Positions 4,599-34,287 of a stretch of 64,000 nucleotides of DNA are shown piece by piece (position 1 is the first letter of the stretch; each line of letters opens with the position of its first letter). Source of the DNA: Dentipellis sp. KUC8613 (Eukaryota > Basidiomycota > Agaricomycetes > Russulales > Hericiaceae); contig NSJX01000024.1 of NCBI GenBank assembly GCA_002286715.1, forward strand, positions 186,001 through 250,000, written 5' to 3'. The notes beneath the pieces were generated by a model, which was not told the origin of the DNA, ran no database searches, and saw nothing but the letters and a program-made list of their open reading frames with translations. Both the position numbers and the translations under genes were made by a program.

Positions 4599-4837
4599 TT
4601 GATATACCCATTACTGCTGTCTCTGTATTTTTATCGCATATCTTGCACGGAACGGTATATCAATGATTGCAAAACATACTCAGTGGACGAATATCATCAT
4701 GCGTTCCGACCTTGAGCTTCTCAGCTTGACTACAAAGGCGTGGTTATAACGCCCTTTCATTTCCGTGAGTATAATAAAAGCAAGGTAAAGTACAGCACAG
4801 AGATAGACATAAGAGAGCACAACTTTTCGAGAGACAC

Positions 4838-6382
<1,545 letters not shown>

Positions 6383-10112: not shown

Positions 10113-10154
10113 ATGTCTCATCCATCGAAGACGCGGAGACAATTATCACAAAAA

Positions 10155-11515: not shown

Positions 11516-11585
11516 NNNNNNNNNNNNNNNNNNNNNNNNNNNNNNNNNNNNNNNNNNNNNNNNNNNNNNNNNNNNNNNNNNNNNN
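11516..11585. other. Assembly gap (70 N)
   Basis: Seventy unresolved bases lie inside the decayed F-box/LRR region. Any frame crossing it is unreliable. Confidence 0.99.
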
Positions 11586-13571: not shown

Positions 13572-14106
13572 GCGATGTACCAACGCTTCCAACCTACGAC
13601 CTTGTCGTCCTAGCGTACGTAATCCTGGCTTCGCACGGCCTGCAGGCGTGCTTCCTCGCTTCATCCTGTGGCCGCCCTCTACAACTTACTCAGTGGAGGT
13701 GACATTCCGCATCAGGAAGAAGTTCGGCGTGGCCATCTCTTGTCGCTTCAGCTGGGAACAACTATGTTAGCCTATGGGCATCTACCGACGATCAAACACA
13801 CTCAACGCAGAGTGCACGAAGCCTGCTCGCCGACTCTCCTGGTTATGCTGATCCGAGAGGAGTCGGGTATTGAGGATAGGTATGTGTATCGCAGACGCGT
13901 CGAGGTCGGACACGCCGATTGACAGATTTGATGGACTCACGTGCCGAAGAGGTTCGTCAGCGACCACCTTACTCCACATGCACGACTGGATAAAGTTATT
14001 ACAGGTAAGCGGGGGTGGTCACAATTGTCTCTAGCAAAATACATCTTCCCTGCGGGAGGTGGATATTGGAGTCAAATAATGCTCAGCGCAGGTTTTCGTG
14101 CACTCG
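13572..14106. other. Gene-less stretch left of the retrotransposon
   Basis: No coding or RNA feature is supported. It ends with the sequence ACTCG that borders the left LTR. Confidence 0.45.
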
Positions 14107-14325
14107 TGGAAGCCGCCGGGCGGGCGGCAACACTGAGACAGACGGGAACAGAACGGGATAAAGGCGTGGATATGAAAGTGGGGTAAAAGTAGATACAGGA
14201 GGTAGTGCTATGAGGATCTACTTATATGATGAACTGTCGGCGTCGTGGAATACATGACGCGTTGGAACGTCGAACATGCACGTGAGTACGGTACCAGAGG
14301 CACGTGGTAACCAGCCAGGGTTACA
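14107..14325 (-). repeat. 3' LTR of the gypsy element
   Basis: 219-bp LTR with TG...CA ends. Contains a minus-strand CATATAAGTAG stretch that may be the TATA element. Identical to the 5' LTR except at 14241. Confidence 0.93.
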
Positions 14326-14338
14326 CTCTTCCCCCCTC
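14326..14338 (-). other. Polypurine tract
   Basis: Minus strand GAGGGGGGAAGAG immediately before the 3' LTR: the expected plus-strand primer site for reverse transcription. Confidence 0.8.
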
Positions 14339-14494
14339 GGAAAAAAAGGGATGAGCAGGAAGGGGCGGGGGGAAGAAGGACGACGGAGAAAGGGAAAGAA
14401 GGGGAAGAAAGAAAAGGAGAAGAAAAAATTATGTATGAGCCGGAGGATGGGGAAGGTGAGAGAGGGCGAAAACGAGGGAGGTGGAAGACGTCGG

Positions 14495-17400: not shown

Positions 17401-19603
17401 TGAGGCGAATGCGGTGCAGAACATCGGTGGGGAGATCGTCAACAGGTGGGATATCTGAGGGAAAACGATCAGCGAAGCGAGACCGGAACTGTGCCTCGAG
17501 GTCCTTGAGACGCTCGGCTAAGGCAACGTGCTCAACGCGGGCACGAATAGCAGCCACGATGGCCGCGGGTGATGATGGCGAACACCGGCGATCAAACCAG
17601 GCTCGTCTCCGTGAGAGACGATGCTCCAGCTGGCGCATGACAACAGCATGTATATTGCGTATCTGTAAGCGCTCGCGGATTAGGGAAACAACAGGGTTCG
17701 GGGCAGGAACAGGCGATGGGGTGGGATGGAGAAGGTCGAAACCGGAAGACTTTACAACACAAGACTGCAACTCCATATCGACAATGATGCCGTTATGAGA
17801 CAAGAAAGGTCCGCCGAGAATAATAGGGACACATAACGAATCCGGTGCCACAAGAGCGCGAACCGTAAGAGAAACGAAACGGTGATCTAGGGACGAAAGA
17901 GAAAGTTTGACCCATTCATGGGCCGCAACGGAGGACGGAGTGGAATCCGCCTCCCCCCCTGCAAAAGCCGCACCAAGTTGAATTGGTGACGGCAGACGGC
18001 GCCGGCGCAGGCCAGCGCGGCGGACCAGGTGGTCCGCGATCAGCACGAACTGCGAGCCGTCGTCAATGAGGGCCGAGATAGGTGCAGGGGAGGGGAGGAG
18101 GGGACCGTCAAGAAGACAGTCCCACAGCAGGCTTGGGGTCTGGAAGGGAGGCAGGGAGGACGAGACGCACCTGTCATCCTCTGAGTCCGTACTCAGGACT
18201 GCAGAGGGATCCTCCGAAGTGGGCACGACGGCCGCGACGCGACCTGCCGGGGCGCGCGCCTTCTGTCGAGCCTGGACCTTCAAGGCTTGCTCTTCAGAGA
18301 GGGGACGGTAGGTGTCGGCGTCTGGGTATCCCGTAGGGCAGTCGCGCGAGCGGTGGTCGACATAGAATTTGCGGCATTTGAAGCAGCCGTTATGACGGCG
18401 TAGCAAATCACGGTCGGCATCGGTGAGGGAGGGTAACCCGCCCCCGGCACGAGCGGAACGACTGTCGTTGCGCGTGCCGGGGGTGTACGCGTTTGTCGAT
18501 GAGGAGCGTCCGGCAGGCGCACGCTGACGCTGGCTGCGGCTTGCTTCTTCCGCAACGTCGCGGGCGTACTGGAGCCGTCGGCGATCAAGGCGTTCGACGA
18601 GGTCGCACCAGGCATCGAAATCGAGGGCGGTGGTGTCCTCGAGGGCGAGATCCTGTTGTACACGGGGGTTGAGAGCAGAACAGATCTGGCGTTGTAACGC
18701 GTCCTCGGTTAGCTTCGCTGAGTCCAGAAGGGAATTCCACTTCTGTAAACGGAGGAGCCAATCCGGGAACGGTTCGTCACGCTGGCGGCTGGACAAGAGT
18801 TTGTTGGACAAGTCTTGTTCCCATGTCGACGAGAGCCACTTCTTAGCAATGGCCTTGACAAAGTCATCAAAGCTGAGCTTGTAGAGCTGGGAATCGTTGA
18901 GGGAAATCCAGTTGCGGATCCGCTTGTCCATGAAGCAGAAGGAGACCATCTTGGCCTGCTTGTCCTTATCAATTTCGGCATGGTAAAAATACGCCTGGCT
19001 GGCGTGGCGCCATTGATCGAGGATCTCTGGGGTGAGTTTACCTTCCGAGACAATGGGTGCCTTGCTAAGCGAGGTTTGCGTGACGGTGGCGACATTCGAG
19101 GACATCGTGTTTTGCGATCGGGGAGCGGGAGTGAGACAATCGTCAGAGTCGGAGTCGTCGCGGGTGGTCCGGGTGCGGGTGGTCCGAGCAGGCGGCGCGC
19201 GAGCGACGGGCGGGACGGAAGAGAACGACGGGGCGGAAGGAACCGATCCTACTGGCTGGCTAATAGATTCGGTCGTTACGGTGATCTGTGGTACGATCAC
19301 AGTCTCCGCGATTGGGGAAGTGTCGGGCAAGGATACCGGCGAGGATACGGGGCCAAGTAGAAGGAAAGGGGAGTCGGCGGGTGACTGTAAGGCGGAGGAG
19401 AGATCCGAGATGGCGGAACTGGGTAGCGAGGACAGCGGCGAGAGAGACGATAACGGCGAGATGTCCGGGGAGGACAGCGGTTCTGCACCTGCGGTGCGCG
19501 AGCGGGTGCGGGGCAGAGTCGGCGGCGGTGGCCTAACCGAGAGACCACGGATGTTGCGACGGGACGACAGGGTTACGACGAGGGAACGGAACGGCAGCGG
19601 CAC
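14495..19603 (-). CDS. Gag-Pol-chromodomain polyprotein of the gypsy element
   Basis: Uninterrupted 1702-aa frame. Domains by approximate residue are: Gag with capsid-like region (about 180-360); zinc knuckle CFKCRKFYVDHRSRDC near 403; aspartic protease ALIDDGSQFVLI near 510; reverse transcriptase with the CHVYLDDIIIW active site near 893; RNase H from about 1040; integrase with an HHCC-like region (HDSLGHFGADKSY...GCQECQ) near 1236-1280. The integrase acidic residues lie near 1308 (AIDFIG), 1370 (VSDRD) and 1404 (HPETDGASERTN). A chromodomain-like end with W-x-YLTTWRGWGQEDVRWLP lies near 1621-1660. Gag and Pol share one frame, as in Tf1-like chromoviruses. The RNase H motif reads TTEASD where TTDASD is usual. 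The frame starts 33 nt inside the 5' LTR boundary. Confidence 0.95.
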   Translation of the reverse strand: MPLPFRSLVVTLSSRRNIRGLSVRPPPPTLPRTRSRTAGAEPLSSPDISPLSSLSPLSSLPSSAISDLSSALQSPADSPFLLLGPVSSPVSLPDTSPIAETVIVPQITVTTESISQPVGSVPSAPSFSSVPPVARAPPARTTRTRTTRDDSDSDDCLTPAPRSQNTMSSNVATVTQTSLSKAPIVSEGKLTPEILDQWRHASQAYFYHAEIDKDKQAKMVSFCFMDKRIRNWISLNDSQLYKLSFDDFVKAIAKKWLSSTWEQDLSNKLLSSRQRDEPFPDWLLRLQKWNSLLDSAKLTEDALQRQICSALNPRVQQDLALEDTTALDFDAWCDLVERLDRRRLQYARDVAEEASRSQRQRAPAGRSSSTNAYTPGTRNDSRSARAGGGLPSLTDADRDLLRRHNGCFKCRKFYVDHRSRDCPTGYPDADTYRPLSEEQALKVQARQKARAPAGRVAAVVPTSEDPSAVLSTDSEDDRCVSSSLPPFQTPSLLWDCLLDGPLLPSPAPISALIDDGSQFVLIADHLVRRAGLRRRRLPSPIQLGAAFAGGEADSTPSSVAAHEWVKLSLSSLDHRFVSLTVRALVAPDSLCVPIILGGPFLSHNGIIVDMELQSCVVKSSGFDLLHPTPSPVPAPNPVVSLIRERLQIRNIHAVVMRQLEHRLSRRRAWFDRRCSPSSPAAIVAAIRARVEHVALAERLKDLEAQFRSRFADRFPSDIPPVDDLPTDVLHRIRLKDPARVISCRAYSCPRKYRDAWQTLLQQHLDAGRIRPSSSPHASPAFIIPKADPTALPRWVNDYRNLNANTIPDSHPLPRVDDILADCARGRIWGKMDMTNSFFQTRVHPDDIPLTAVRTPWGLYEWTVMPMGGRNAPATHQRRMCAALREHIGKICHVYLDDIIIWSNSIEEHERNVALVLEALRNAHLFCSPKKTELFCVSLNFLGHRISAAGIEADPAKVEKILNWPVPDSATAVRSFLGLVRYLAAFLPHLAEHTLVLNPLTTKDAERTWPGWDPSHQAAFQSIKNLVVGRDCLTTIDHQNMGDNHIFVTTEASDWHTGGCLSCGPTWDTARPVAYDSMQLTRPQRNYPVHEKELYAVVRALDKWRSDLLGVHFTVYTDHRTLEFFQTQRDLSRRQARWSEFLSQYDFDIVYVPGADNTVADALSRLPPDTEPVVIAPVLRISADENLLQEIKANYAHDQFCLRLKHNLASVPGATERHGLLYVCDRLVIPRVSKLREMLFTLAHDSLGHFGADKSYAALRDAYYWPGMRKDLESSYIPGCQECQRNKAGTRRPAGPLHPLPVPDARGDSVAIDFIGPLPEDNGFNCIVSMTDRTGCDVRIVPCRTDISAEEFARLFFDHWYCNNGLPLDIVSDRDKLFVSQFWRALHKLSGIRLKMSSSFHPETDGASERTNKTVNQCLRFHVDRHQQGWSRALPLVRFHILNSVNDSTGFSGFQLLLGRSPRLIPPLAPQDVAAESSSTDPAQRAADLIRQIDLQYREAQDNLLAAKVNQAEFANRHRRPDDTIAVGDRVYLSTFHRRRDFMGQDSSRVAKFMPRWDGPYLVTAARPQTSSYTLALPNSPRACNSFHASLLRKFVPNDDTLFPSRKLDRPGPVVDADGVHEWVVDKIIDARRRGRGWQYLTTWRGWGQEDVRWLPGSELNDCEALDRFLTDHPDKYNAPIARPVSKSRRRPRKSRKPFPSPS

Positions 19604-19636
19604 AGCAGTACGCCTTTAAGGACGTTCAAAAAAAAG

Positions 19637-19855
19637 TGGAAGCCGCCGGGCGGGCGGCAACACTGAGACAGACGGGAACAGAACGGGATAAAGGCGTGGA
19701 TATGAAAGTGGGGTAAAAGTAGATACAGGAGGTAGTGCTATGAGGATCTACTTATATGATGAACTGTCGGTGTCGTGGAATACATGACGCGTTGGAACGT
19801 CGAACATGCACGTGAGTACGGTACCAGAGGCACGTGGTAACCAGCCAGGGTTACA
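19637..19855 (-). repeat. 5' LTR of the gypsy element
   Basis: 219-bp LTR, one mismatch to the 3' LTR. Contains the same TATA-like element. Confidence 0.93.
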
Positions 19856-19868
19856 ATCGTACTCGATA

Positions 19869-19897
19869 TGGAGGGCCTGGCCGGACAAAAATATTTG
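19869..19897 (+). repeat. Left terminal inverted repeat of the 14.4-kb element
   Basis: Begins TGGAGGGCCTGGCCGGACAA and continues AAAATATTT. Matches the right end in inverted orientation with a single-base indel. Confidence 0.88.
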
Positions 19898-19925
19898 GAT
19901 CTCAGAACCGAGTTTCGTTTTTGAT

Positions 19926-20215
19926 AACCAGGTTTGGTTTCGGTTATTGGTTTTCAATTTCGGCTATTGGGTTACGATTTCGGCTATTGCATTTCGATTT
20001 CGGTTATTGGATTTTGATTTCGGTTATTGGATTTCGGTTTTGGTTATTGGATTTCAGTTTCGGTTATTGGGTTTCGATTTCGGCTATTGGGTTTTGGTTT
20101 TGGTTATTGGGTTTTGCTTTCGGTTATTTGCATTTCAATTTCAGTTATTCAGTTCCAATCTGAGCTATTGTATTTTAGTTTCAGGTATTGGGGTCTCAAT
20201 TATGGCTATTAGAGT
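19926..20215 (+). repeat. Subterminal tandem array, unit about 20 bp (left)
   Basis: About 14 degenerate units of the type GGTTATTGGATTTCGATTTC follow the left TIR. The array opens false ORFs rich in F, G, Y and W. It resembles transposase-binding subterminal repeats in position. Confidence 0.85.
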
Positions 20216-20801
20216 GTGACACTGAGTTGTGATTTCAGATGTTGGGTTCCATTCTAGCATGGTGTGGGGTTGGGTTGGGTTAGGCTAGGTTGGACTTTTA
20301 GCTCCAGGGGCCCATGTGCTAAGTGTGTGCAAAAGTGCTGGACTGACTCTATCAAACATGCCTAATGCAGCACCAATGAGTGAGTAGGTAATAACTCCTC
20401 ATTTGAATTGACCTTTGTTCTATCAGTCTTGATGCTTTGGTGGTTTGAGCTAGGTTGAGTATGTGGTGAAGACATGGGGAGCCTCAAGAATGTACTTGGC
20501 TTCCAGTCTAGTTCAATAAGACCTCATTCAAATGGAGTGGTACAGTGTCATGAAATAATTGGCCAATGTATTAACTAGGACCTGAAGTTTTCCAGAGCTC
20601 AAGAATCCTGCATTTTTACAAAGTAGGTAAAAAAGGATATGGACATATGTGGCTGTGGCATAGGGGGGGGGGGGGGGGTAAGACCATTTATAGACAAGGA
20701 GTTGAGTATGGTACCAGCAAGAGAAGAGTTAGAGTGTCCATGGCCAGATAAACCAAGCAGCATAGAAACACAGCCTAAAGTATGGTTCTGTAGATGACAG
20801 G
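20216..20801. other. CpG-free spacer between the left array and the dioxygenase gene
   Basis: Contains GGGTTGGGTTGGGTTAGG near 20266, a 17-base G run near 20662-20678, and no CpG. No gene is seen; it probably includes the 3' UTR of the dioxygenase. Confidence 0.6.
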
Positions 20802-23755
20802 TCATGCAGTGGAAGGTGAAGAAAAGGAGAACTGAAAGGTGGTACCCTGAGTGCTGAAAGCATGCTGCATCTGCTCCTTCTTATCAGCTAAGCCTGAGTG
20901 ACCATCTGCCCTAGCCATTTTTAGTGTGTCATAACCAGTCTCTGCAGACTGGTGCATTGAAGCCATAGTGAACCAGACAATTGACCCTCTGCCTGTATCA
21001 TCTCCCTCAGAAAGAGGGGTGCAGTTGCTGAGGTCTGGCTTTGGGAAGCTCCCATCTTCAGTAAACACAAACTTGATATCTACACCAGACCATGAAACTT
21101 TATGAAAAAAAAAAGGAAGAAGAAAACAAAAACACACCAGAGATGTCCACATTGAAGTGAAAGAATAGAGAGGAGGGATAGATGAGAAGAACCCAAGGTG
21201 GGAGTTCTATGATAACTCCAGCCTCCCAAATAACTAACCAGGAGCGCTGTGTGTGATTGAATTTAGCTAGAGAAACAAAATTCATTAGCTGTTCAATCAA
21301 CAACAACAACAACAACAGAGCACTCACAACCAGGCTTCAGATACACCATCAATGCACAGACACTTATGGGATTCTTAGAGTCTGAGTGAGGAAGGCAATG
21401 GACACGTTTGTGGCCTGGAAAGATGCCATTTATACACATGTTAAAAAAAGAGCCAAACCTGGCTTTGATGTGAAATCTCTTCTGGTGCCAGGCAGCACAC
21501 TCTTGGAACCTTTTGTGCACTCCAGGAAAAGCCATGCAGAGAACTGAAGACACAAATTTGCTGCATACAAGCATTAGTGGGTGGTTTTTGTAGAACAAAA
21601 AAAAATTGACTTCAGCCTTATGACAAGTTCTTCCTGAAGGAAAAACTCTGCATCCTCAATGTGCTTGTTGTGCCACCCAGTAAGGCAAGGGGCCTAAAAA
21701 ATATGTGAACACAGTAGCTAACACATTGTAGAACAGCTACCTTTGCCGACTGTCTGTAGTGGCCTAGAATACAAGGAAAGTGCTGGCCTCTAACTCCTTT
21801 CTTGCACTTCTTTTGAGTACTTTTGTTGGTAAGAGTACTCTGTAGAAGCTTCTCTATGAGAAAATATAGAGAGTCCTTCTCCTCTTGTGTCCAAGACAAA
21901 GCAAAAGCACGATACAGGAAAAGTCTTTCTTCTTGATCCACTAGCCACAGTGCCATTTTCTGGCTATGGTTGTGCTTTGTAAGTTATGCACAGGCAGAAA
22001 GTGGTAGTGTGCAGTACTCACCTAGATTTGCTTATGTAGGGCAGTGGAAGAAACCTGCTGAGGTCTTCCTTTATTCTCCCACTCTTGTAACGGCTTCGGA
22101 TCTGTTTGCGGCGATACTCAGGAGGCTCAGCACCCTGCCAACCTGACTGTGATGCTCGGCCATCACGTAGAATGTCAAAAGAAGTAAGGACCACAGTCTG
22201 CCCAGACTTTATGCTACGCAAAAGCAGTTGGTTTCGGCGAACTCCAGGATCTTCTTGATGAAGCTTGCGTCTCTCTGCTCTACGTGCCTGTCTATACTTA
22301 GCCTGGGACTGTTTCCCTCGGCCCTGCACTTTGCGCTTTGCAAGTGGCATAGAAGTATTGAATGGTGGTCTTTCAATACTAGTCAGATGTTGGGTTGGGT
22401 TGGGTTGGGTCAGAAAGGCCAGGCAATTGATGGATAGAAATTACTTACGACTGAGAAATGTGAGGAGTTGCATTAACAAAGGCAGCTGTCACCTCTGGCA
22501 ATGGCAGGGTCCGAGACCGTTTCAAACCATATGTGTAGCCTGTAGCAGAATAGAACCCAACTGAGTTAACTGTACACAGTTCAAGTAATATGGGCTCAAA
22601 CCTGTGGTAGACTTTGGCAGGCCATACTAGTAAAAAGACAAATTAGCAAGGATAAACTATAAGGCCAAATTGAACTGAATAACTGAAGATGTACCATTTG
22701 GATTTGGCTGTGACCAGATAGATCAACTCCGTCAACCTCATCCAGCACTCTTTTGACTCCACGAGGAGCAGTGTCAGAGGCACTGCTCTCACCAACACTT
22801 CCCTGGCTTCCTTCCCCCCACTCCTCAACCTCATCAAACCCACCACCACTGCCTCTGCCCTCAAAGTCACTGCCAGAGTCCCGACTTGAGCCATCAGCAC
22901 CATGGCTACTCTGGCGAAGAGGGGGTGCCCGTCGAGACCGGCCGATGTCACTGCTGTTGCTGAAGACACTCCCTTGCTCAAATGATGCCTGGCTGTCGAC
23001 GTCATCATAGTCACTGGGAGGCGGTGCAGTCCCCCAGTCACTGGTGTAGCCACCCTCTGTTATGCTGGCTAAGCGAACACCACGCTAAAGTAACTCGAGA
23101 ACTTGCCTCCTAGTTCACCACCTTCGGAACTGCCTTCCTCAACCTCACCCTCCTCAAGCTCCGTCTCACTAACCTCACCCTCTTCCAACTCCCTCCCTCC
23201 CAGTTGGCCTTGCACTCGGGAATGCATTGAATGGCTGCCGCCCTTGAGCCTGTCAAGTCTCAGCTGAATAGTTCTGTATGAGGCTTCCAGCACATACCGA
23301 AAGGCTGCAGCCTGCGTGCTGCTCCCGACCTCGGCCTCGACCTCGCTCTCACTGCCTGCCTCACTACTGCCTCCAGCCTCACTACCAACCTCTGCCTCTA
23401 CCTGGCCCTCACTGCCGCTGCTACTGAAACCGGCGCCATTCCACAGGCGCGACTCTTCGTCGTCCGAGAAATCCGAGTCCTCAGACAGGTGTGCCTCAGC
23501 AGTAGCAGCTTGCCCGTGCCCGGGCTGCGGGAAGAGTGCAAGCCCGAGTGCCAGCGGGTCTGAAGCATTGGCAACCTCGCTTGCATCGAGGATTCCGAAT
23601 GCCACAGCATCAGCTGCCATAGCGAGTGGGTCACTCAGGTATTCATCAGCCTCCAAAGCCCGCCTGTGCCTGATGTATGGCTGGAGCAGGTCGCGCAGGC
23701 GGCACGGCGCCTTCACTGTAAGCTCTACAGCTCGTGTCAGAAACCTGCAGAGCAG
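20802..23755 (-). CDS. TET/JBP-type 2-oxoglutarate/Fe(II) dioxygenase (first exon not found)
   Basis: Predicted to oxidise 5-methylcytosine or thymine in DNA. Ten exons fit with consistent phase: 23107-23755, 22695-23056, 22602-22626, 22449-22539, 22022-22378, 21741-21963, 21611-21693, 21331-21560, 21138-21266, 20802-21097. They give 814 aa without an initiator ATG; the N-terminal exon lies upstream of 23758. Residues 60-340 are acidic, Ser/Gly-rich and probably disordered; a basic Arg/Lys/Gln region follows (residues 420-460). The catalytic double-stranded beta helix includes FGSFFNMCINGIFPGHKRVH, the iron motif PHSDSKNPISVCALMVYL (H-x-D near residue 654), WLVIWEAGVIIELPPWVLL and the distal His in SSLFFHFNVDIS (near residue 709). 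A conserved tail has DDTGRGSIVWFTMASMHQSA. One intron uses a GC donor (23106). Fungal TET/JBP proteins are known to be transposon-linked. Activity is inferred. Confidence 0.85.
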
Positions 23756-23758
23756 CTG

Positions 23759-24345
23759 CGCAGGCACACGTACCAATCTGTCCTAGTGTGCTGCTAGAGA
23801 TTTTTCAGAGTGTGTCAGTTCCGGGACCGAGGGATACAGCGAGCAGAACGCACTCGTTCATTGCGGCAAGAGTACGTTGTCGTAGAGGGGAGGAAAGCGG
23901 CAAAGCAGGGCGAAGCCTGCTGCTGACCCTGTTCCCCTACTGCGGCCCGAGTACGCCCCGTGGTGTGCTTCTAAGAATGGCGGCGCACGCGGAGACCATG
24001 AGACGGCCCGAGCGAAGGCACTGGGCAGCTAACACCAATGCAGGGCGCCGCGTTGAACACGAGTTCGAGCGGTGCGTCAGTACCACTCCGACAAACCCCC
24101 TTTTGTAGGTGCCCCTCACACGCGGTGTGAGTAGCGAAGCCGCAGCCTTCAGCGCGTGACACGCCTCATGGCCTCCCACGGCGCGGTGCGCGCCGTTCGA
24201 GTAGCTGCGCAGCATTGGGGCCGGGCGCCCCAGGTGCCGAAGTGACGCACGGCATCCGACTTGGCTGCCTTCGCTCAGGCGCACGACAAATGCGAAGTGG
24301 TCGCACGTCCCGCCGTCGACGCAGCCCGCGTAGCACACGGTCGCC
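23759..24345 (-). other. Unresolved region upstream of the dioxygenase exon
   Basis: Holds a 138-codon minus frame (23937-24353) with AFVVRLSEGSQVGCRASLRH but no family signal. It may contain the first exon of the dioxygenase or the end of the next ORF. Confidence 0.35.
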
Positions 24346-25020
24346 TCAGACATTGTCTGCTAGTCGTCCGTCATGAGAGCACTGCGACCCACTTCTTGAA
24401 TGCAAGTTTGCGTAGGTGTACGACACCGTTGAACGAGACGCCTCCCGTGCTGCTCGTGTCCAGCTCGAGCGCCTCGAGCGCGACGTCGCATGTGAGGGCC
24501 AGGCTACATCGAGTCCGGCGAACAGCGGAAAGCCGACCTTGTGCGGCGGGAGCATGCCCTTATGCTTCTCCTCACAGCTGTACAGGACCGCAGGGAACTC
24601 GCTCTCCGTGTCGCTCTTGTTCATTGCAGTCGGGCTCCCGTCGCACGAGACGGCGAGCGGCTTCTGCTTGGCGAGGAAGGGCTTGACATGGACGAGCTTC
24701 GCGTCAGAGTTTACCGCCTTGGCAAGCGTCGGCGTCGAAGGCTCGGTCTTGCTCGCGAGCGCCACGGGCATGGTCTGCACGACGAGGCCGCCCTTGGGCG
24801 AGCTGCGGAGGGGCTTGCCAAAATTTTTGCGCAGGAGCGAACCGGAAGCCGTCGCGGATGCAGACGCGGGCCACGATAGCACGGAGGTTGAGGTTGCGCG
24901 GAGCGTGTGGCCGTGCGATTCCGAGAGGTGCCGGTGTGTGGTGATGTCGATGCGGAGCTCGCTGGCGGCGCACGCCGGGCGCTGCGGGCGTGGTGTGTCG
25001 TGGTCCGGGTCCGGGTCCAT
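24346..25020 (-). CDS. Uncharacterised element-borne ORF
   Basis: The frame from ATG 25018-25020 (MDPDPDHDTPRP) reads 224 codons to 24346. It is Ser/Thr/Pro/Ala-rich, with HKVGFPLFAGLD near the end. In the neighbouring frame just after this point, LALTCDVALEALELDTSSTG continues with GVSFNGVVHLRKLAFKKW, which looks more protein-like, so a small intron near 24510 probably joins the two. No family is recognised. Same strand as the other element genes. Confidence 0.4.
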   Translation of the reverse strand: MDPDPDHDTPRPQRPACAASELRIDITTHRHLSESHGHTLRATSTSVLSWPASASATASGSLLRKNFGKPLRSSPKGGLVVQTMPVALASKTEPSTPTLAKAVNSDAKLVHVKPFLAKQKPLAVSCDGSPTAMNKSDTESEFPAVLYSCEEKHKGMLPPHKVGFPLFAGLDVAWPSHATSRSRRSSWTRAAREASRSTVSYTYANLHSRSGSQCSHDGRLADNV

Positions 25021-26600
25021 TGGGCCTGCGGAGCGGGCAAACAGAGGACGCGCAGGCGGCGTGAGACGGCGGGCACACAGGGGAGGGATAGAGCGCACGG
25101 GATAGCGCGAGCGTGTGGGCGCGCGGCGCGACACGGCACGGCGTCACGACACAGAGGACAGACGGACGCGTAGGGAAAAGAGAGGGCGGAGCGGCGCGGA
25201 CGAGGGCGCGCGACACGGCGCAGGCGGCACGAAAGGGAGGGCCGGGTGGCGGGAACGAGGGCGTGCGGTCGACGCACTGTGCGCAAGATGGTGCCGGCGG
25301 TGTGATGCAGCGCGTGAGGGAGGGCAGAGTGGTGAGCAGGCACGTGTATGGGCGGCACATGCACAAGGGAGAGGGCGGGGCGACAACGCGGAGCGGGGCG
25401 CATGGGCAGGACTCGGGGGGCACGGATGCAACACGGAGACCACGGGTGCGACGTGAGGCACACAGGCACGAAATGGGGCGGACTGGCGAGGGCGAAGCAG
25501 TGCGGTGAGGGCAAGACGGCGCGAGCGAGCGCGACACGGGCGTGATACAGGGCACACGGGCGCAACGTGGGGCACATCGGCAGGGGCGAAACAGCGCGGT
25601 GAGCGCGGCTGGCAAACGTCAATGTGAATGCGGGTCCGAGGGTGAGGGTGAGGGGAGGAAGAAGCACCAACTGGTGCGAGAGACTAACCATGGTTGTCAT
25701 TGGGCCACTTGGGCATGCCGACTGTGGTCCACACCGAGTGCGGAGGAGTGCGGGCCGCGACGCGCGGAGCGGATTGCAGCAATTCCTGCGGAGTGCAGCC
25801 TGTGCGACATGTCAGTCATTGACCGTCTGTGTTCCGTCTGCTTCATATTCACCGTTGCAGTGTTATGGGCCTGCGTCGAGTGGCCTGCTCGGCTCCAGGA
25901 CTGAGTGACGCGTGCTCGCCTCGTGGGTTTTGCAGTGGTTCAGGCAGGTAGAGGTGAGACGCAAGCGCTCGGACGCATGAGCAGGGCGCTGCGGGCGTAG
26001 GAGCGCCGAGGTGGCAGTTGTTTCCTAGCTTTTGGCCACCTGTTTTATCTTCTCAAATGCGGGTGCAGTCCCGACACCGAGTTCTACACCCTATGCAAAC
26101 CGTGTTTCATTTCACCTACTACAGCTCAAGGGACTCGCTACATTTGCTACTACTCTACGCTGCCCTCTACTACCCTGCCTTACTCCGCTGGCGCAAGTAG
26201 CGCGCCCAAAGCACTGTAGCTGCCGCCCTCTGAATTCCCCATTCCGTAACACCCTGCGCCCTAGCAATGCTGCGCGCGAGTGTTCACGGCACCCTGCGAC
26301 TCGGAACGCCGCCAGCAAGCAACTGAGGAAGCAGGGCGGCGCTCTTGTGGCAGGAAAGAGTCGGGTTGAGCGACTGCCCTGCTGGGGCACCGCAGCCTCT
26401 GGAGGAGGATTCGGGACTTGCGGCGCGTGGGCTGCTGTCTCTAGAGCGGGCCCGCAGCAGCGCCGTCAGTGCGCATGGCCGTACACGGGTGAAGGGAGGC
26501 ACTACTTACCTGCTCTGAGCCCGCGGCTGGCGTCTAAACCGCTTCAAGCGGCAGCGGTGTGTCGTCGCCACGCCCGCTAGTGCGTCGGCCTCCGCGAGAG
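25021..26600. other. Compositionally biased stretch of the element
   Basis: 25040-25640 is a purine- and GC-rich region with overlapping open frames on both strands, none with family features. 25640-26600 holds nothing recognised. Confidence 0.45.
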
Positions 26601-26780
26601 TACTACTCCCGGCCTAGGGCTGCATTTCCGCGCGCTCGGCGGCTGCCTGGTTCGGCGAGCGCTGAGCGGGCGGGACGCGCGAACTCCGCGCAGCGCGAGC
26701 CGCTCGGGACCGCCTCCAGCTGCGCGGAGAGCAGAGCTGCGAGCCGCGCGAGGGAGGGAGGGCCGGAGCACGTCGGTATG

Positions 26781-27475
26781 CGAGCAGGTGGGCGAGGGCG
26801 GCGGCGCAGGTAAGTCCCCCGAGGGCTGCAGCGTGGCCGGCGGCGCTCTGGCGGCGTGGGAGTGTGGCGGCGTGGGGCGACGCCGGCTGCGGCCGCCGAA
26901 AAGAGGCGGTGGGAGCGCGCGAGGGGCGGGCTGATGTGCGAGCAGGTGGGTGAGGGTGGCGGCGCAGGTGAGTCCCTCGGCGGCTGCAGCGCGGCCGGCG
27001 GCGCTGTGGCGGCGTGGGGCAACGGCGGCTGCGGCCGCCGAAAAGAGGTGGCGGGGGCGCGCGAGGGGCGGGGTGGTGTGCGAGCAGGTGGGCGAGGGTG
27101 GCGGCGCAGGTGAGTCCCTCGGCGGTTGCAGCGCGGCCGGCGGCGCTGTGGCGGCGTGGGGGAGTGTGGCGGCGCAGGTGAGTCCCTCGGCGGCTGCAGC
27201 GCGGCCGGCGGCGCTGTGGCGGCGCAGGTGAGTCCCTCGGCGGCTGCAGCGCGGCCGGCGGCGCTGTGGCGGCGTGGGGCAGCGGCGGCTGCGGCCGCCG
27301 AAAAGAGGTGGCAGGGGCGCGCGAGGGGCGGGGTGGTGTGCGAGCAGGTGGGCGAGGGCGGCGGCGCAGGTGAGTCCCTCGGCGGCTGCAGCGCGGCCGG
27401 CGGCGCTGTGGCGGGGTGGGGGAGTGTGGCGGGGTGGGGCAACGGCGCCTGCGGCCGCTGAAAAGAGGCGGTGGG
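26781..27475 (+). repeat. GC-rich minisatellite, six copies of a core of about 52 bp
   Basis: The core GCAGGTGAGTCCCTCGGCGG followed by CTGCAGCGCGGCCGGCGGCG recurs near 26808, 26966, 27107, 27174, 27226 and 27367. Spacing is about 157, 141, 67, 52 and 141 bp. Longer units also share GAAAAGAGG...GCGCGAGGGGCGGG. The array creates long Ala/Pro/Arg-rich ORFs on both strands that are probably not genes. Confidence 0.85.
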
Positions 27476-27902
27476 GGCGCGCATGGGGCGGGCTGTACAG
27501 CGCAAGTGGCCCCCAGCGAGCTCGCGCGGGGCACTGGGGGCGGCTGGCTTCGCGAGCGGCGGCGCGGCCGGGGAGGGCAGCCCACGCGCCTGCGGCGTAG
27601 GGGTGGCTGCAGACTGCGTGGGCGCGCCGTGCGCGCGTGCGCCGGAGCCACGCGCGTTCGCTGCTCGAAAGGCCATGGCTGTGAGGCGCTGCCGGCGAGC
27701 CTGCGGCGTAGGGGCTAGCCGCAGACTGCGCAGGCGCTGTAAGTGGGTGGGGTCGGGGGCGCGGGCGAAGCAGGCGTAGCGCATGGCGCAGGCGAGGGAG
27801 GCAGTCGGGAGGTGCAGGGGCATAGAAACCCGCAAGGTCCGTTCCGGTGCGTGGAAGCTAGCGTCATGCGGGTTTCTGAGGGGAGGAAGAGAGGCGCCAG
27901 AC

Positions 27903-27912
27903 CCTATATAAG
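27903..27912 (+). promoter_or_regulatory. TATA-like element on the plus strand
   Basis: CTATATAAGGCG is a strong TATA consensus, but no plus-strand gene is recognised downstream. Confidence 0.3.
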
Positions 27913-28266
27913 GCGAGAAGCGCCGACACGTGGCAATTGGCACTGCCACAATGATGTGTCGCGTCAGCGGCATTACATCAGGTGCTTGGCTCACCTGTCT
28001 CGAAAGCGAGGTCTCAATCTCGCGGAGAGCGGGTGCCGAGTGAGCTGCTGGGGAACGACAGGCTGTAAACAAGTGCTAACATTAGGTCCCTGAGAGGAAT
28101 ACTAGGTCGTAAATGCGTGAGGGCGTAGGGCGTGAATGAATGGACACGGTGGGGAAATTAAAAGGCATCGTAGTAAAGGCGTGTCGACGTAGGTGTCTCA
28201 ACGAACCTGGTGGGGTTTGTTCAGTATGTGCCTGTATCATAAAACACTCCCGTACAACTCCAGGCA

Positions 28267-31248
28267 CTAGGCCTGAGTGAACGCTTGGCTGTCGTCAAAA
28301 AGGCTCTGTAAGTAAGAGTCGAAAGCGGTGGCCGTCGCTGTTTCTTCAGGTATGTCTGCATTGATGAACGTGTCAGCGACGCCCTGGTTTAGCAAGATGT
28401 CGACTGAGTTGAAGCATAGGTGGAAGCTGGCGACTGAGTCCTGTAAGAAGGCACTCAGCCAAACAGCTGCATCTGTGTGTGCGAGAGAGGGCTTACCGGG
28501 TCGCTGATGTTGCGCTGGAATGCAATCTGGGGAGTTGTGTCAGTCGCTGCGGTGCCAGGATAAAAAACTGCACCTCACCCTGAGCTTCTGTGGTGGGGGC
28601 GGCAGGAGGCTGCATCCAGTCAAGGCTCGTACAAAGCCGACCGCTCGCTCCACCCCGACTCCTCCCATGAGGTAGCGTCGAAAAGCCGCCAACCAGCGCT
28701 CCTCCAGACCTGCAAAATCTAAGCTACTGCTCAGCGCTGCGTCTGCAGGCACTGGAGTGACATCGAGGCGGCACAGGACGTCTCTAGCACTCCTTACAGT
28801 GCGTGCAGAGCCATACATCTCGCTCAGAACCTCCAGTACCTGGTCCTCATCTGCGAATAGGTAACGGAGCGCGCTGTTGTCAACAGCCTTCTTGAGGTCC
28901 AGGCCTTCCCGGAAGTAGCGTACTGCTGGCTGTTGCTCGAGCGAGGCTGCAGCAGCTCCGAACAGTGCATAGTTCTGGAACTCGCTGGTTAAAGCGGTGC
29001 ACTGCTCTCTCGAAAGGCGGCGCATGTATTGCAGCTGGTAAGTAGCATAGTCAGGTGGCAGAGGGAAGCGGAAGACGACAGAGAACTCACTGGAACACTT
29101 TCAAACTCTGGCAACTGATAAAGAGAAAGCAGAGGCTCGCGTCCTAGAACTAAGTTCGCGAAGTCTCCTCCGTCTTCAGAGGTAGTGAAATCGGGCGGCC
29201 AAGAACTGATGCGACTGCCGAGTCCAGGAGACACTGCAGTGACAAAGCGGCGGAACGTGCCTGCGAGAGGGAACTCAGGAGGCCCACACACCGCGGTATA
29301 CAAAAAGACTGGCGAAATTGAGCCAATTCCGAGCTCCCAGAGTATTGAAAAGCGCAAGATGCAGCCGATGCTGCGAAAGTAGGCTGCGTCTTGTTCGACT
29401 GCCGAGAAAAGCGCAGGCCGCGTCAACACTGGGGTGGAGAGGCCGTCGTCAACCTGGAGCCAGTGGTGCCTGCCTTCCGCCATAGCAATGTTGAGCAGAG
29501 CTGTCCAGACTGATCGCACCACTCCGTCACCTACGCCTCTGCCTCTGCATTGCAACGGCGGCATGTTAGCCAAGTGCCCTGTAGGCGGTGTGGCGACTTA
29601 CACAGTGATGTCAGGCAGGCCTGCGGACAGGCTCAAAAATGTTGCATTCTCGATTTGAGCAGTTCCTACCACCATGTGCTGGCGCCGAGGCTCAGAGCCA
29701 TTTGCAAAAGCCTGAAAGAAGCTCCAGAGGCTCTGAGCAGCTGAAACTGTATCAGGCGCCTGCACACTCATTCTCCTTGTGGCCTGGTCGCGGTATCCAT
29801 CCCGAAGGTGTTGCCAAGCCAAGAAGCCCTCCGGCACGACTGAGTTTGGCTGGGGCTCCGCGTCACTAGAAAGGAACCTGAGAGGGATAGGACTCGGGCC
29901 CTGCAGCTCAGCCTGTGAGCGGCCTCCTGTGCCCACGTCCCCTCCAGGCAAGAGGTGGTGTTCAACGAGCATTGGAGAGGAAGGGAGGGAAACGTGCGTC
30001 AATGCCGGGCTTAGAGGGCGTGACTGCTGCAAGAAAGTGTATTAGTTTACTGAATGAACTCACGAAAGAAAAGAAAGGAACTCGCCTCAGGAGGGTCGGG
30101 ACACAGCTCCCAGCAAATTACGACCACTCCTCGCCCTTCCTCCGCGTCCGTGGTATGGTAGCCATTGTATAGCCGTGGAGCGAGGCAGTAGTGCCCTGGG
30201 ATGCCCTCGAAAAGCCCTATGATGTAGTCATGGACGGGAACTGTAGGTAGAGTTGAACAAAGTGCCTTGGAAGTAGATGGGACTACGGGCTTACCAATGA
30301 GAAAGAGATTGAGGTGGTCCACAGAATAGCACCGAATAGAGGAGAAGAGGCGAGAAAATGTCAGGAGTTCGGTACTCATGTCGCCAATTCCTGGCTGCAA
30401 AATGGCAGTAATGCCGGGGTGTCTGGCTGCCTGTCGCGCAACCAGTACGATCCACTGGCGTTGGCTTGCAGGCGCTTGGTTTGGGACTAGGTTGACGAAG
30501 GCGAGGCTGTGAGCAGTCATGTGTGAAGCAAGCGCTTGCTCAAGGCTGGGGGCAACCCGGTCTTGTGGCCGGCCTGTGTACTCAAACCGAAAATACAGAC
30601 CCAGCGACTCAGCCTGATCAATAAACTGCCACTGCTTGTGGAGGGCTGGTGCACGAAGGGTTTGGAAAGCTCCTTCTGCCTCGGAGTGAAGCGCGCCACC
30701 TCCGACCTAACAGCAAGTCAGCGACTGGCATGAAGACAAACGAATGGAAGTATACGCACTGCGTGTGGGACAATGACGCAGTCGAACGCCATGTTCTGCA
30801 TATTGCGCGTAGGCGGAGTTACACGCCTCACGGCACCTGCTCCACGCGCTCTTGCTCTTACAGTCATGACAGGGGAGGGCGCTGTGGGCATCGTAACTCG
30901 AGGTACCTGGGCAACTCCCTGGCTGGCTGCCCTGCTGCTAGACCGGGGGGGAAACCATGGCTGAGGCACCGGCTGTGAGGGAGGCGGAACTGCTGCAACA
31001 GCTGGAGTTGGCGGGAGCAGTGTAGTAGGGTGGGACTGGTTTAAGGCCTGTGTCGGAGCTGCTGGTGAGCGGTCAGGTAGCTCCACGTGGTGCCAGTAAG
31101 GGAGCCGGCAATTTGAGCACAGCGACTGGTAGCCAAGGTTAGGGAGGGCCTGAGTCGGAGGGCAAGAGCGGCTCAGCCACAGGCAGCAGAGTCGCAAGTT
31201 CTCTTACGCACCAAGGAGAACAATCCACCACCGACGCTGCTCGGACAT
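28267..31248 (-). CDS. HECT-like ubiquitin ligase-type protein of the element
   Basis: Multi-exon gene with a clear 3' half. Phase-consistent exons are 29091-29578, 28579-29034, 28497-28526 and 28267-28440. The last exons read VGFVRALTG...QKLRIAFQRN, then DSVASFHLCFNSVDIL and YLQSLFDD. These correspond to the C-lobe of HECT ligases (TG..., K-I-x-F, then the catalytic T-C-F-N turn; here H-L-C-F-N with the cysteine kept). Upstream exons (30042-31160) encode a CSNC pair near the N-terminus and a region with QWIVLVARQAARHPGITAI. One intron has a GC donor (PDPPE to QSRPLSP). The junction near 29580-29600 and the 5' end could not be resolved; the ATG at 31246-31248 is a guess. E3 activity is inferred. 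Confidence 0.65.
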
Positions 31249-31259
31249 GTACGAGCTGC

Positions 31260-31968
31260 TAGCTCAGGTAACTGTTGAGCACGGTGACACTCAGCATTGT
31301 GTGTACAGGCGCAGAGAGGTTCGTTCTAGCCAAGGGAGTGGGAGTCAGACGAAGGGCGGAAACACTTGATGCAAGCAGCACTCACGCCCAGGAAAGATGT
31401 GCAAGGACATGGGCCTTGCGGCGTCTGCGCACGGCATGCACCAGTGGAAGGACCAGGACCCGAGTGAGGCATGCTTCGAAAGGAGCGAACAGACTAGTAG
31501 AAGGAGCGAAACAGATAGCAACACTGTGTGGCCGAGCTGAAGCAAAACGCCGCAGCGCAAGCTCTAGCACTGCTAGGAGCTCGGTGAGGGACAGGGATGC
31601 GGCTTCAGGACTTTATACTGCCTGTGGAGCACAGCTGTGTAAGCGTACAATGTGAGGAATAGAGCTGCAGCGGCGTCCCTGTGGTGCAGTAATTACCTTG
31701 ATAGAGAGCCACATACTGCATGACTGCTGCATGGATCAGTCGCCCACAGGTGCCAAGGACTCAAAATGAGCAGTGCTTACACTGATGAAACTGCTCCTGC
31801 ACGACACGTGTGAGACAGCCTGTGTCTCAGACTTCGGGAATCTATCCTCAGTGCGATGCAGACATGAAGGCCTGCATGCACGATTACTTACACTGGTAGA
31901 TCTTCACAGCTGTGCCTGCCACATCAGTACGTCAGGTGCTGATTCGACCGTTAGCCACGCACCGGAAG
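31260..31968. other. Spacer between the HECT-like and integrase genes
   Basis: Short open frames occur on both strands without family signal. It may hold 5' exons of the HECT-like gene. Confidence 0.35.
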
Positions 31969-33926
31969 CTACGGCCTCCATAAATTAGTGCAATAGTTTA
32001 GCGCCAGGTCCCATACTTGCGTCTTCGAGTGCATGTCTATTTGACGAATCTGAGGTAATGATGACACGTATGCCTGGAGTTGGTCGACGTGGTATTCGGT
32101 GAGAGGACAATCTGCCTCTGGAACGTGTACATAGGAGAGGTGGTCTGGAACGTGTGAAGTGAATGGGTTCTGGGCTACACCAGGGCCTTCAGCTTGGCTG
32201 TTCTCTCGCTCGTGGTGCTCAATGATATCTTGCCGGTGAAGATCAGCCCAGTCTATCCCGTAATTTGGCTGGTCTGCTTCGTCCATGTCACCAGGGTCTT
32301 CTGCTGAAACGGGAGCAAAGATGCTGCGCCGCCCGTGTAGCACCGTGCCATGAGTATATAGCTGCACAGGAGTAAGGCTAGGCTGTCCACGTCGCCGCAG
32401 CACATGGTTGTTCCAGGCTCCCATCCAGGCCTGTGCGTCTTGGTTGACGGCTTCGAGAAATAAGAATTGAAGAAGCCAGATGTGCGAATCAAGGTTGACG
32501 TCCAGTCTGTGAAACAGCTCCAGGGAGTGAAAGAAATCCTTCCACTTTGACCCGAAACCACTGGTTACATCGACCCACAGGCGTTCGATGCGTATGTTGT
32601 GTACGCTCCTGTGGATGCGTGAACAGAGCTCTGCGACATGGGTACAGAAACTCACCGCCCATGGATGTACGACCCTCGGTTTGGGCCGCGAACCTCTTCC
32701 ATACGTGCGGCAACAAGTTGGTTTTCTCCACCATAGTCACCTCGGACTCGGCTTGGGTAACCGAACTCACTTGCAATTGCTTCAAATAGCTCAAGGACGG
32801 TTTGTGACAGGTTGTTTGTGCTGGCACGGATACCAAGCACAAACCGAGAGTAGCCGTCAATGAATGCATGGATGACAATCTTCCACCTTATTAGACCTGT
32901 TGAAGAGGCAGTGAGCGAGAGACTGTTTCAACACATCGGGGAGAAATCTACCATGCTGCCCGTCATGGTGCAGTAGTGAGTTCGGCCCCGGAACTGAGTA
33001 GACACGTCGTTCGAGCCGACGGGGACCAAATGAGCGAGTTGAAGGGCCAACAACTCGCCTGTATGACTCCTCAAGGCGCTGCCTAGGGACGCGCTCTCCG
33101 AGCTCTATGAGGTAGCCATCGATCATGCGGCGCCCAAAGGCAGGAAACTGGTGGTATATTGATAAAACCAGCTGGTCAAGCTCCTCGTCACTGAGGTGAG
33201 ACAAGTTACTAGCCGACCCTGGGTAGTAAACACGGAGTAGTGTCCCATCGCCTTGTGGAGTGTCTTGGTATACAGGAGGGCTGGCTTCTGTAAGACCAAA
33301 GTCAAGTAGTCGCCGCCTTACTGTTCGAGCTGAGCAGGCATAAAGCAGAGCGATATCAGTGTTTCGACCCCGTCCACTGGATAAAACAGACAAGTCCTCC
33401 GGTGCTATGTTGACATAGGGCCGCCCTCGGCGCCCACTTGATATGCGTGTGGAAAAAGGGGGAGCCGGAGTGTCTGGGTCGTCGGCAGAAGCAGATACAG
33501 CTTCTTCCAACTCGCTGACCATGCGCCCAATGCTAGACTGCATTGTCAGAAAGAAATCTGCGGCTATCAAAGCGCGGTGCTTGATGCTTTTCAGAAGAGA
33601 GTATTTGTTAAAGGAAGGCTCAGGCTCACAAAGTGGATATCTGCCAGTAGCCGGTTACATTCATCCTGGTGGATCCCTAACCGGTGGGCATCTCCAAGCT
33701 GGGTCGCTAGGGCGCAGTCCACTCGGTAGCAGAGTGCACTGTATGCATCGAAGATGTTGCGAAAGACTACGGACTCTGTCCCAGCAACAGCTGCCATAGC
33801 TGCTCGAGACCAGGCTGTCAGTGAGTCGATAACGTAGCAGACACGTGCCTGGGGGCGCTGAGACTCGTGCGCCTCCCAGTAAGGCACTTCGTTCCTGCTA
33901 GGCGGCCTAGGCCGTGTGCTGCTCAT
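31969..33926 (-). CDS. DDE integrase (retroviral-integrase-like transposase)
   Basis: Four exons (33630-33926, 32952-33537, 32656-32896, 31969-32608) total 1764 nt, 587 aa, all phases consistent. A helix-turn-helix-like segment (NTDIALLYACSARTVRRRLL) precedes the core. The catalytic triad is: Asp in LLHHDGQHG, Asp in VRGDYGGENQLVA (55 residues later), and Glu in SVHNIRIERLW (34 residues between), the D-x55-D-x34-E spacing of retroviral-type integrases. The region after the core has GAWNNHVLRRRGQPSLTPVQ, typical of this integrase class. The closest known relatives are 'integrase core domain' proteins of fungal and animal DNA transposons. Best candidate for the enzyme that moves the 14.4-kb element. 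Confidence 0.9.
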
Positions 33927-33998
33927 AACGCAGTACCAGACCTAGCGCTAGCTTCAGGATTCGAGCTTGTAACTCTCCTGAAGCCTCAGAGGCTCAGA

Positions 33999-34245
33999 AG
34001 CTTGGGAACCCAACCCAACCCAAAGTGTCCAAAAAAAGAAGAGCTTGCAAAAATCTCGATTGAAACGGCCACGAGAAGTGAATGAATGAATACCAAAACG
34101 AAACCACAAAAACCAAAATGAAACCCCAAACCTTCGAACCGAAACCACAAACCCGAAAACGAAACCGAAATCATGAAAATGAAACTGAAATCACGAAAAC
34201 GAAACTGAAATCACGAAAATGAGATTATGTAAACAAGAACGCAAC
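33999..34245 (-). repeat. Subterminal repeats of the element (right)
   Basis: CCCAACCCAACCC near 34010 mirrors the GGGTTGGGTTGGG at the left side. 34090-34240 holds about seven degenerate units of GAAACTGAAATCACGAAAAC type (20 bp). The minus-strand sense (GATTTCRGTTTCGTTTT) resembles the left array, giving inverted but unequal subterminal arrays. Confidence 0.75.
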
Positions 34246-34249
34246 ATCG

Positions 34250-34278
34250 AAAAATATTTTGTCCGGCCAGGCCCTCCA
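34250..34278 (-). repeat. Right terminal inverted repeat of the 14.4-kb element
   Basis: Reverse complement reads TGGAGGGCCTGGCCGGACAA then AATATTT. Followed outward by AA and the repeat ACTCGAT. Confidence 0.88.
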
Positions 34279-34287
34279 AAACTCGAT

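What the first reader, a model, noticed from the sequence alone, without database searches (positions are those of the whole stretch)
19861..34287. A 14.4-kb DNA element that couples an integrase, a HECT-like ligase and a TET/JBP dioxygenase
Seen: inverted ends TGGAGGGCCTGGCCGGACAA... at 19869 and 34278, a shared flanking ACTCGAT, and four coding regions on one strand between them. Known: Iyer and colleagues linked basidiomycete TET/JBP genes to KDZ-type transposons. HECT-like and integrase-core proteins occur in other eukaryotic DNA transposons. Here no KDZ-type transposase is visible; instead a D-x55-D-x34-E integrase is present. Inference: this is a distinct class of element that carries its own DNA demethylation enzyme and a protein-ubiquitylation factor, possibly to escape host methylation and host repair or silencing proteins.
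Basis: partly seen in the sequence, partly recalled or inferred. Interest (0 to 1): 0.93.

Follow-up and report, generated by a model that had tools for sequence, protein, structure and literature searches.

The report
TET-carrying integrase transposon in a mushroom
This is a complete 14.4-kb jumping gene in a wood-decay mushroom that carries its own cut-and-paste enzyme together with a TET-type enzyme of the kind that oxidises methylated DNA, and a second, differently equipped element in the same genome suggests that the combination is not an accident.

Summary
The element is real. In Dentipellis sp. KUC8613 it spans 19867-34280 (14,414 bp) and encodes an rva_4 integrase, a large middle protein and a TET-fold dioxygenase, all on the minus strand. 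Its ends are TATGGAGG.../...CCTCCAAA, with 22 bp of perfect inverted repeat and a 6-bp (not 7-bp) duplication, ACTCGA. A 1.9-kb element with related ends (C161) has its own 6-bp duplication.

The strongest evidence is a second 14,408-bp element (C80:52883-67290) with inverted repeats identical over at least 764 bp, TA..TA ends and duplication GAGGAG. It carries a different rva_4 integrase, an alpha-kinase and the closest relative found of the window's dioxygenase, in the same order and orientation. The dioxygenases are sisters (support 100/99), while the integrases align only locally (26% over 82 residues), so the dioxygenase gene has probably moved between transposon lineages.

The class is not new: TET-carrying IS3EU transposons were reported in rusts and a truffle (PMC12730594). 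New relative to that text are their presence in Russulales, the collinear order, and an orphan protein in the alpha-kinase slot. I could not confirm that this protein is HECT-like. Escape from silencing is inferred, not shown. Verdict: new variant of a known kind.

The parts
19861..19866 (.). left target-site duplication ACTCGA (6 bp)
   Evidence: same 6 bp at 34281-34286
19867..19890 (+). left terminus TA + 22-bp inverted repeat TGGAGGGCCTGGCCGGACAAAA
   Evidence: 8 of 10 related ends examined in the genome are preceded by TA
19938..20149 (+). left subterminal array of about 10.6 copies of a 20-bp unit (consensus TTTCGGTTATTGGATTTCGA, CpG-containing), possible transposase binding sites
   Evidence: similar repeats next to the left end of the C128 copy; binding role inferred
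20802..22576 (-). TET-family 2OG-Fe(II) dioxygenase, core: 465 aa traced over 7 exons, HxD...H...R residues present
   Evidence: fold matches of the paralogue model
22694..23782 (-). probable N-terminal acidic part of the same dioxygenase gene (exon limits not fixed)
   Evidence: weakly similar stretch at the same place in the C80 gene
23800..28200 (.). GC-rich spacer with tandem repeats at 26863-27432; no gene assigned
   Evidence: two open frames in it gave no Pfam match
28268..31472 (-). middle gene (public annotation DENSPDRAFT_882425, 699 aa, covers the larger C-terminal part; my 5' exons are a draft); orphan protein, HECT-like by motif only
31969..33926 (-). integrase-type transposase, 602 aa, exons 33926-33630, 33579-32952, 32896-32656, 32608-31969; Pfam rva_4; D305, D362, E397
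34092..34219 (-). right subterminal 20-bp tandem repeats
   Evidence: similar repeats next to the right end of the C150 copy
34257..34280 (-). right terminus: 22-bp inverted repeat + TT read inward (CCTCCAAA on the + strand)
   Evidence: the C150 right end also has TT
34281..34286 (.). right target-site duplication ACTCGA

Best explanation
The window holds a complete IS3EU-like cut-and-paste DNA transposon of 14.4 kb that carries a TET-family DNA dioxygenase. The integrase-type (DDE) transposase binds the inverted ends and probably the 20-bp CpG-containing subterminal repeats, cuts the element out and joins it to a 6-bp staggered target, which leaves the 6-bp duplication. The TET enzyme probably oxidises 5-methylcytosine on the element's own copies and so counters host silencing or keeps CpG-containing binding sites usable. 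The middle protein fills the place that an alpha-kinase takes in the second element at C80 and probably acts on host or transposon proteins. Shown here: ends, duplication, gene order, integrase family, TET fold (on the paralogue) with catalytic residues kept, and a second independent element with the same layout. Inferred: transposition activity, TET substrate and the anti-silencing role. Unknown: the activity of the middle protein.
Against: The window's right end reads TTTGG inward, not TAYGG. The perfect inverted repeat is only 22 bp, whereas rust TET+ IS3EU have more than 30 bp. Of 4 two-ended elements examined, 1 (C61) has no matching duplication (GTATAG against TTAACG). No second full copy of the window element was found. 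The CpG depletion is concentrated in the TET gene, so it may reflect that gene's own history. No phylogeny with Repbase IS3EU transposases could be made. The TET substrate is untested.
Confidence: 0.82

Rival explanations
1. A chance cluster or nested set: an integrase element into which a separate TET-bearing element or gene piece was inserted later, not a working unit.
For: The TET gene differs sharply in composition from the rest (GC 0.44-0.50, CpG O/E 0.05-0.36 in 20667-23066, against 0.62-1.25 in the later 800-bp steps), and a 4.4-kb GC-rich spacer without an assigned gene separates it from the middle gene. A perfect 16-nt inverted pair (20140-20155 and 22672-22687) frames the TET core. 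The exact trio with this middle protein was found once in this genome. Among 120 integrase and 41 dioxygenase homologues listed from other genomes no contig length is shared and I saw no adjacent locus tags by eye; few species are in both lists, so this is weak.
Against: The C80 element independently has integrase, second enzyme and TET, same order and strand, inside its own inverted repeats. Two of the five rva_4-type integrase loci found (C89, C80, C133, C95, C22) hold TET; one, C133, cannot be judged because bases 1-12154 are N. The 16-nt pair has no direct duplication next to it, one arm lies at the edge of the subterminal array and the other in the upstream part of the TET gene, and perfect pairs of 16 nt or more occur elsewhere in the window too.
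Confidence: 0.07
2. The TET gene is carried but does not serve escape from methylation: it makes another DNA modification, acts genome-wide without benefit to the element, or is on the way to loss.
For: Sequence identity to the solved TETs is only 8-14%. The AG-type residues that PMC12730594 reports for 5mC and 6mA work in CcTET (Asp337, Gly331) are not at the matching ungapped positions here (Ala, Asn; my reading of the sequence). CMD1, also among the matches, makes a different product.
Against: Reading frame and catalytic residues are intact, and the gene is kept in two elements with different transposases.
Confidence: 0.25
3. The element belongs to the KDZ (Kyakuja-Dileera-Zisupton) group linked to basidiomycete TET genes.
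For: Kyakuja, of the KDZ group, is the TET carrier that PMC12730594 reports for Russulales; 28 KDZ matches exist in this genome.
Against: The transposase is rva_4. Of the 11 dioxygenase loci found with the window's protein, 10 have no KDZ match on their contig and the eleventh (C1) has one about 400 kb away; some of these loci lie near contig ends. Kyakuja makes 7-bp duplications and has no inverted ends (PMC12730594).
Confidence: 0.01

Closest known systems
TET+ IS3EU transposons of rust fungi and Tuber indicum (PMC12730594, Kojima 2025; abstract, passages, sections 10, 18, 23 and part 1 of 24 read)
   Same: TA.. termini (given for the rusts), 6-bp duplication, DDE transposase, TET/JBP gene on board; alpha-kinase in the C80 element
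   Different: There TET lies between a transposase and an alpha-kinase of opposite orientation; here all genes point one way in the order transposase, second gene, TET. The window element has no recognisable alpha-kinase. That paper lists only Kyakuja as TET carrier in Russulales; its supplements were not available to me.
IS3EU/GingerRoot DNA transposon superfamily (PMC10045372, passages)
   Same: DDE transposase without HHCC zinc finger, TA..TA (occasionally TG..CA) termini, usually 6-bp duplication
   Different: cargo genes; the right terminus of the window element is TTTGG inward
Styx of Zymoseptoria (PMC10853768, passages)
   Same: large IS3EU-related fungal element, integrase gene, extra captured coding sequences, 6-bp duplication CATAAG in the case shown
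   Different: no TET gene is mentioned in the passages seen
TET+ Kyakuja (KDZ) and CcTET
   Same: TET-fold dioxygenase carried by, or close kin of those carried by, a mushroom DNA transposon (PMC12730594); CcTET is the best structural match
   Different: transposase, ends and duplication length; about 10% identity of the dioxygenase

Membership tests
IS3EU/GingerRoot transposons | integrase-type DDE transposase | tested here: met
   rva_4 E 1.2e-20 on one exon; D305, D362, E397
IS3EU/GingerRoot transposons | no HHCC zinc finger before the catalytic core | tested here: met
   no H-H-C-C pattern and no CxxC in the 602-aa protein
IS3EU/GingerRoot transposons | 6-bp target-site duplication | tested here: met
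   window ACTCGA, C80 GAGGAG, C161 ATCAAG; C61 has none: 3 of 4 two-ended elements
IS3EU/GingerRoot transposons | TA..TA termini | tested here: inconclusive
   the window's left end is TA, its right end TT read inward; 8 of 10 related ends examined have TA, 2 of 10 TT; C80 has TA at both ends
IS3EU/GingerRoot transposons | transposase groups with IS3EU in a phylogeny | not testable with these tools
   Repbase sequences not available
TET+ IS3EU as described in rusts | alpha-kinase gene on board | tested here: not met
   window middle gene has no Pfam match and the genome search for PF02816 lists only C80 and C22 (counts are lower bounds); met by the C80 element
TET+ IS3EU as described in rusts | inverted repeats over 30 bp ending TAYGG..CCRTA | tested here: not met
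   window: 22 bp perfect, right end CCAAA; C80 meets it: at least 764 bp, TATGG..CCATA
TET/JBP dioxygenases | TET-type dioxygenase fold with HxD...H and 2OG-binding Arg | tested here: met
   the model is of the C80 paralogue P0122, 51% identical to the window protein; sequence profile alone gave no TET hit in the PDB at E <= 10
TET/JBP dioxygenases | oxidation of 5mC | not testable with these tools
   needs an assay
HECT ubiquitin ligases | HECT domain recognisable by profile or fold, with C-terminal catalytic Cys | tested here: inconclusive
   no Pfam match at E <= 10; host-HECT profile 3.7 bits, 1 of 200 shuffles higher, best stretch is the Cys loop at 622-657 of P0121; end-to-end z 2.6 (1 of 150 shuffles as high) against 1.8 for the reversed sequence and 1.7 for the highest of 5 unrelated controls; model without an alignment failed, pLDDT 35
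KDZ transposons | KDZ transposase domain | tested here: not met
   no PF18758 match on this contig; the transposase is rva_4

The most novel reading that the evidence does not exclude
Mushroom IS3EU elements carry a counter-silencing gene set with an exchangeable slot: next to the transposase sits an enzyme that modifies host proteins (alpha-kinase in one element, a diverged HECT-type ubiquitin ligase in the other), followed by a TET enzyme that moves between transposon lineages and acts on CpG methylation, perhaps at the CpG-containing subterminal repeats.
Probability: 0.28. Interest if true: 0.78.

Novelty: new variant of a known kind. Interest (0 to 1): 0.56.

Why it matters
Transposons that carry a methylcytosine-oxidising enzyme are a direct test of the idea that mobile DNA can undo its own silencing. 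This genome offers two such elements with different transposases, different middle genes and sister TET genes, so the role of each part can be separated. It also extends the TET-carrying IS3EU type to Russulales, where the recent survey's text names only Kyakuja carriers.

Tried and rejected
7-bp duplication: rejected in favour of 6 bp, because both ends then carry two bases (TA, TT) outside TGGAGG and three elements have exactly 6 bp.

C128 and C150 as further full copies: only the ends match. C128 shares the left end and repeats, C150 the right end close to the start of its contig. C61 has two facing ends 3.8 kb apart with a run of N inside and no duplication. C119 was read only at its end. 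C133 has a 67-81% identical integrase and one related end, but bases 1-12154 are N. C95 is an integrase without recognisable ends in the 17 kb read. C22 has the second integrase type plus alpha-kinase without TET, and no ends, within the 10 kb read. The 7 end-like places with 3 mismatches were not followed.

HECT by Pfam, PDB sequence search, a profile of 5 host HECT genes, end-to-end alignment and structure prediction: none conclusive. A profile-profile comparison also gave nothing. The search of 5.8 billion proteins with the middle gene returned only its own annotation, but only the 7992 candidates sharing most words were scored.

Sequence-only recognition of TET: the PDB profile search gave no TET and Pfam none for 4 dioxygenases tried; only the fold comparison settled it.

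Literature searches for HECT in such transposons: the listings showed no such report; the PMC12730594 main text has 0 occurrences of HECT and of Dentipellis. Supplementary tables could not be read, so a prior entry there or in Repbase is possible. One search returned nothing; searches added no further paper that I used. Iyer et al. was not read.
Full report
WHAT IS THERE. The window is G000:C89:186001-250000. A protein encoded in it is annotated as DENSPDRAFT_882425 of Dentipellis sp. KUC8613, on a contig of the same length, 412,516 bases. Direct reading of both junctions gives ACTCGA|TATGGAGG and CCTCCAAA|ACTCGA: a 6-bp duplication directly next to the ends and an element of 14,414 bp, 19867-34280. 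Just inside both ends lie tandem arrays of 20-bp units (19938-20149 and 34092-34219).

GENES. All assigned genes are on the minus strand. First, an integrase-type transposase: 602 aa, 3 GT-AG introns, D305-x56-D362-x34-E397, no HHCC zinc finger, Pfam rva_4 with E 1.2e-20 on one exon. The homologue search, which scored the 7990 best candidates, reported 197 relatives at E <= 0.001, of which 120 were listed; those with a named source are mushrooms and other Agaricomycetes as far as I read them. Second, a large middle gene at about 28268-31472. Third, a dioxygenase at 20802 to about 23782; its core was traced through 465 residues and 6 GT-AG introns without stop or frameshift. About 4.4 kb of GC-rich sequence with tandem repeats lies between the second and third genes, with no gene assigned.

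IS IT A UNIT? Three results say yes. (a) The ends recur in the genome: 15 places at up to 3 mismatches against 4 for the reversed pattern; 8 have at most 1 mismatch and were followed, the 7 with 3 mismatches were not. Counting two further ends found by looser matching (C133 and the right end of C161), 8 of 10 ends examined are preceded by TA and 2 (the right ends of the window and C150) by TT. (b) In C161, a 1,889-bp element (191541-193429) in which none of these genes was found has facing related ends and its own 6-bp duplication ATCAAG. C61, with two facing ends, shows no duplication. (c) C80:52883-67290 is a second element of 14,408 bp whose ends do not resemble the window's beyond TATGG: inverted repeats identical over at least 764 bp (the comparison then runs into N), TATGG..CCATA ends and GAGGAG on both sides. 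On its plus strand follow an rva_4 integrase (E 4.3e-11), an alpha-kinase (E 7.8e-17) and dioxygenase P0122, the best match of the window's dioxygenase among the 41 homologues listed. Order and orientation are those of the window element.

MODULE EXCHANGE. In a tree of 40 dioxygenases (window plus the 39) the window and C80 proteins are sisters with support 100/99; the next row is P0123 of Hericium alpestre, 97/85. The two integrases (602 aa of the window, a 235-aa core of C80) align best over 82 residues at 26% identity, E 1.6e-4. So the TET genes are close kin while the transposases are not, which fits transfer of TET between transposon lineages, as PMC12730594 describes in rusts. The 2 alpha-kinase loci found (counts are lower bounds) both lie about 3 kb downstream of the second integrase type, on the same strand: C80 with TET, C22 without TET in the 10 kb read. 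Transposase plus alpha-kinase may therefore be the older pair. This is inference from two loci.

THE MIDDLE GENE. The C-terminal part has a Cys loop that a profile of five host HECT genes picks as its best stretch, but at 3.7 bits, when 1 of 200 shuffled sequences scores higher. End-to-end alignment gives z 2.6 (1 of 150 shuffles as high) against 1.8 for the reversed sequence and 1.7 for the highest of five unrelated controls. Pfam finds nothing up to E 10, the PDB sequence search nothing, and a model without an alignment failed at pLDDT 35. I leave it as a possible, unproven HECT relative. It occupies the position of the alpha-kinase of C80.

METHYLATION TRACES. CpG observed/expected is 0.22 over the window's TET gene, with TpG 1.47, against 1.05-1.08 in the flanking DNA. 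In steps of 800 bp it is 0.49 in the first step, 0.05, 0.27 and 0.36 over 20667-23066, and 0.62-1.25 in the later steps. The C80 TET core is milder at 0.65; of six other dioxygenase loci sampled, one (C3, L038) is at 0.05 and five at 0.69-0.92. Past cytosine methylation with deamination is the simplest reading, but why it is concentrated in the TET gene is unexplained, and a separate history of that gene would also fit.

HOW IT PROBABLY WORKS. Integrase-type transposases join ends to a staggered target, hence the 6-bp duplication (shown as a footprint, not as activity). The subterminal repeats contain CpG and are candidate binding sites (inferred). The TET enzyme would oxidise 5mC on the element and relieve silencing or restore binding; I recall, without a call, that plant Spm and Mu-type elements also encode proteins that lead to loss of methylation at their repeats. 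The middle protein would act on host or transposon proteins (inferred from its place).

COMPARISON WITH WHAT IS KNOWN. PMC12730594 (abstract, searched passages, sections 10, 18, 23 and part 1 of 24 read) reports TET+ IS3EU in seven rust species and Tuber indicum, in the rusts with 6-bp duplications and TAYGG..CCRTA ends, and TET between transposase and alpha-kinase genes of opposite orientation; for Russulales it reports only Kyakuja. PMC10045372 (passages) gives IS3EU as TA..TA with usually 6-bp duplications. So the class is known. New relative to those texts are the host order, the collinear arrangement, the absence of a recognisable alpha-kinase in the window element and the orphan protein in its place. 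The supplements and Repbase were not available.

VERDICT. A real, complete TET-carrying transposon; a new variant of a kind described in late 2025. The claim of a distinct class does not, and the HECT label is open.

Noticed in passing
window 14106-19858: An LTR retrotransposon of Ty3/gypsy type with chromodomain, one 1706-aa open frame and 223-bp LTRs 99.1% identical, ends only a few bases from the left end of the transposon. I saw no clean duplication of its own, although ACTCG also lies at its far side.
   Followed up: partly
window 20667-23066: The TET gene is almost free of CpG (O/E 0.05-0.36) while the middle gene and integrase of the same element are not (0.62-0.88 in 800-bp steps); a dioxygenase locus on C3 (L038) is at 0.05 too.
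   Followed up: partly
window 20140-20155 and 22672-22687: A perfect 16-nt inverted pair frames the TET core, without a direct duplication next to it; perfect pairs of 16 nt or more also occur at 10171/10384, 13171/13548 and 40255/45115.
   Followed up: partly
window 38609-40433 and 42452-44276: A direct repeat of about 1.8 kb at 79% identity, outside the element.
   Followed up: no
G000:C80:52883-53646 and 66527-67290: The inverted repeats of the C80 element are identical over these 764 bp; the comparison stops where a run of N (65942-66526) begins on the right side, and similarity resumes beyond it.
   Followed up: partly
G000:C161:191541-193429: A 1.9-kb non-autonomous element with one end of the TGAAGGGCC type and the other of the C133 type (TGAAGGACAGGGCC), 6-bp duplication ATCAAG.
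   Followed up: yes
G000:C22:310395-314862 (L060): Second-type integrase followed by an alpha-kinase on the same strand, without TET and without recognisable ends in the 10 kb read.
   Followed up: partly
G000 C125, C3, C2, C149, C79, C69, C156, C1, C32: Nine further loci with dioxygenase exons of this family; no rva_4, second-type integrase or KDZ match was listed close by. What carries them is unknown.
   Followed up: partly
window 19867-34280: In the public proteins found, only the middle gene of this element is annotated for this genome; the integrase and dioxygenase genes of the window did not turn up as annotated proteins.
   Followed up: no
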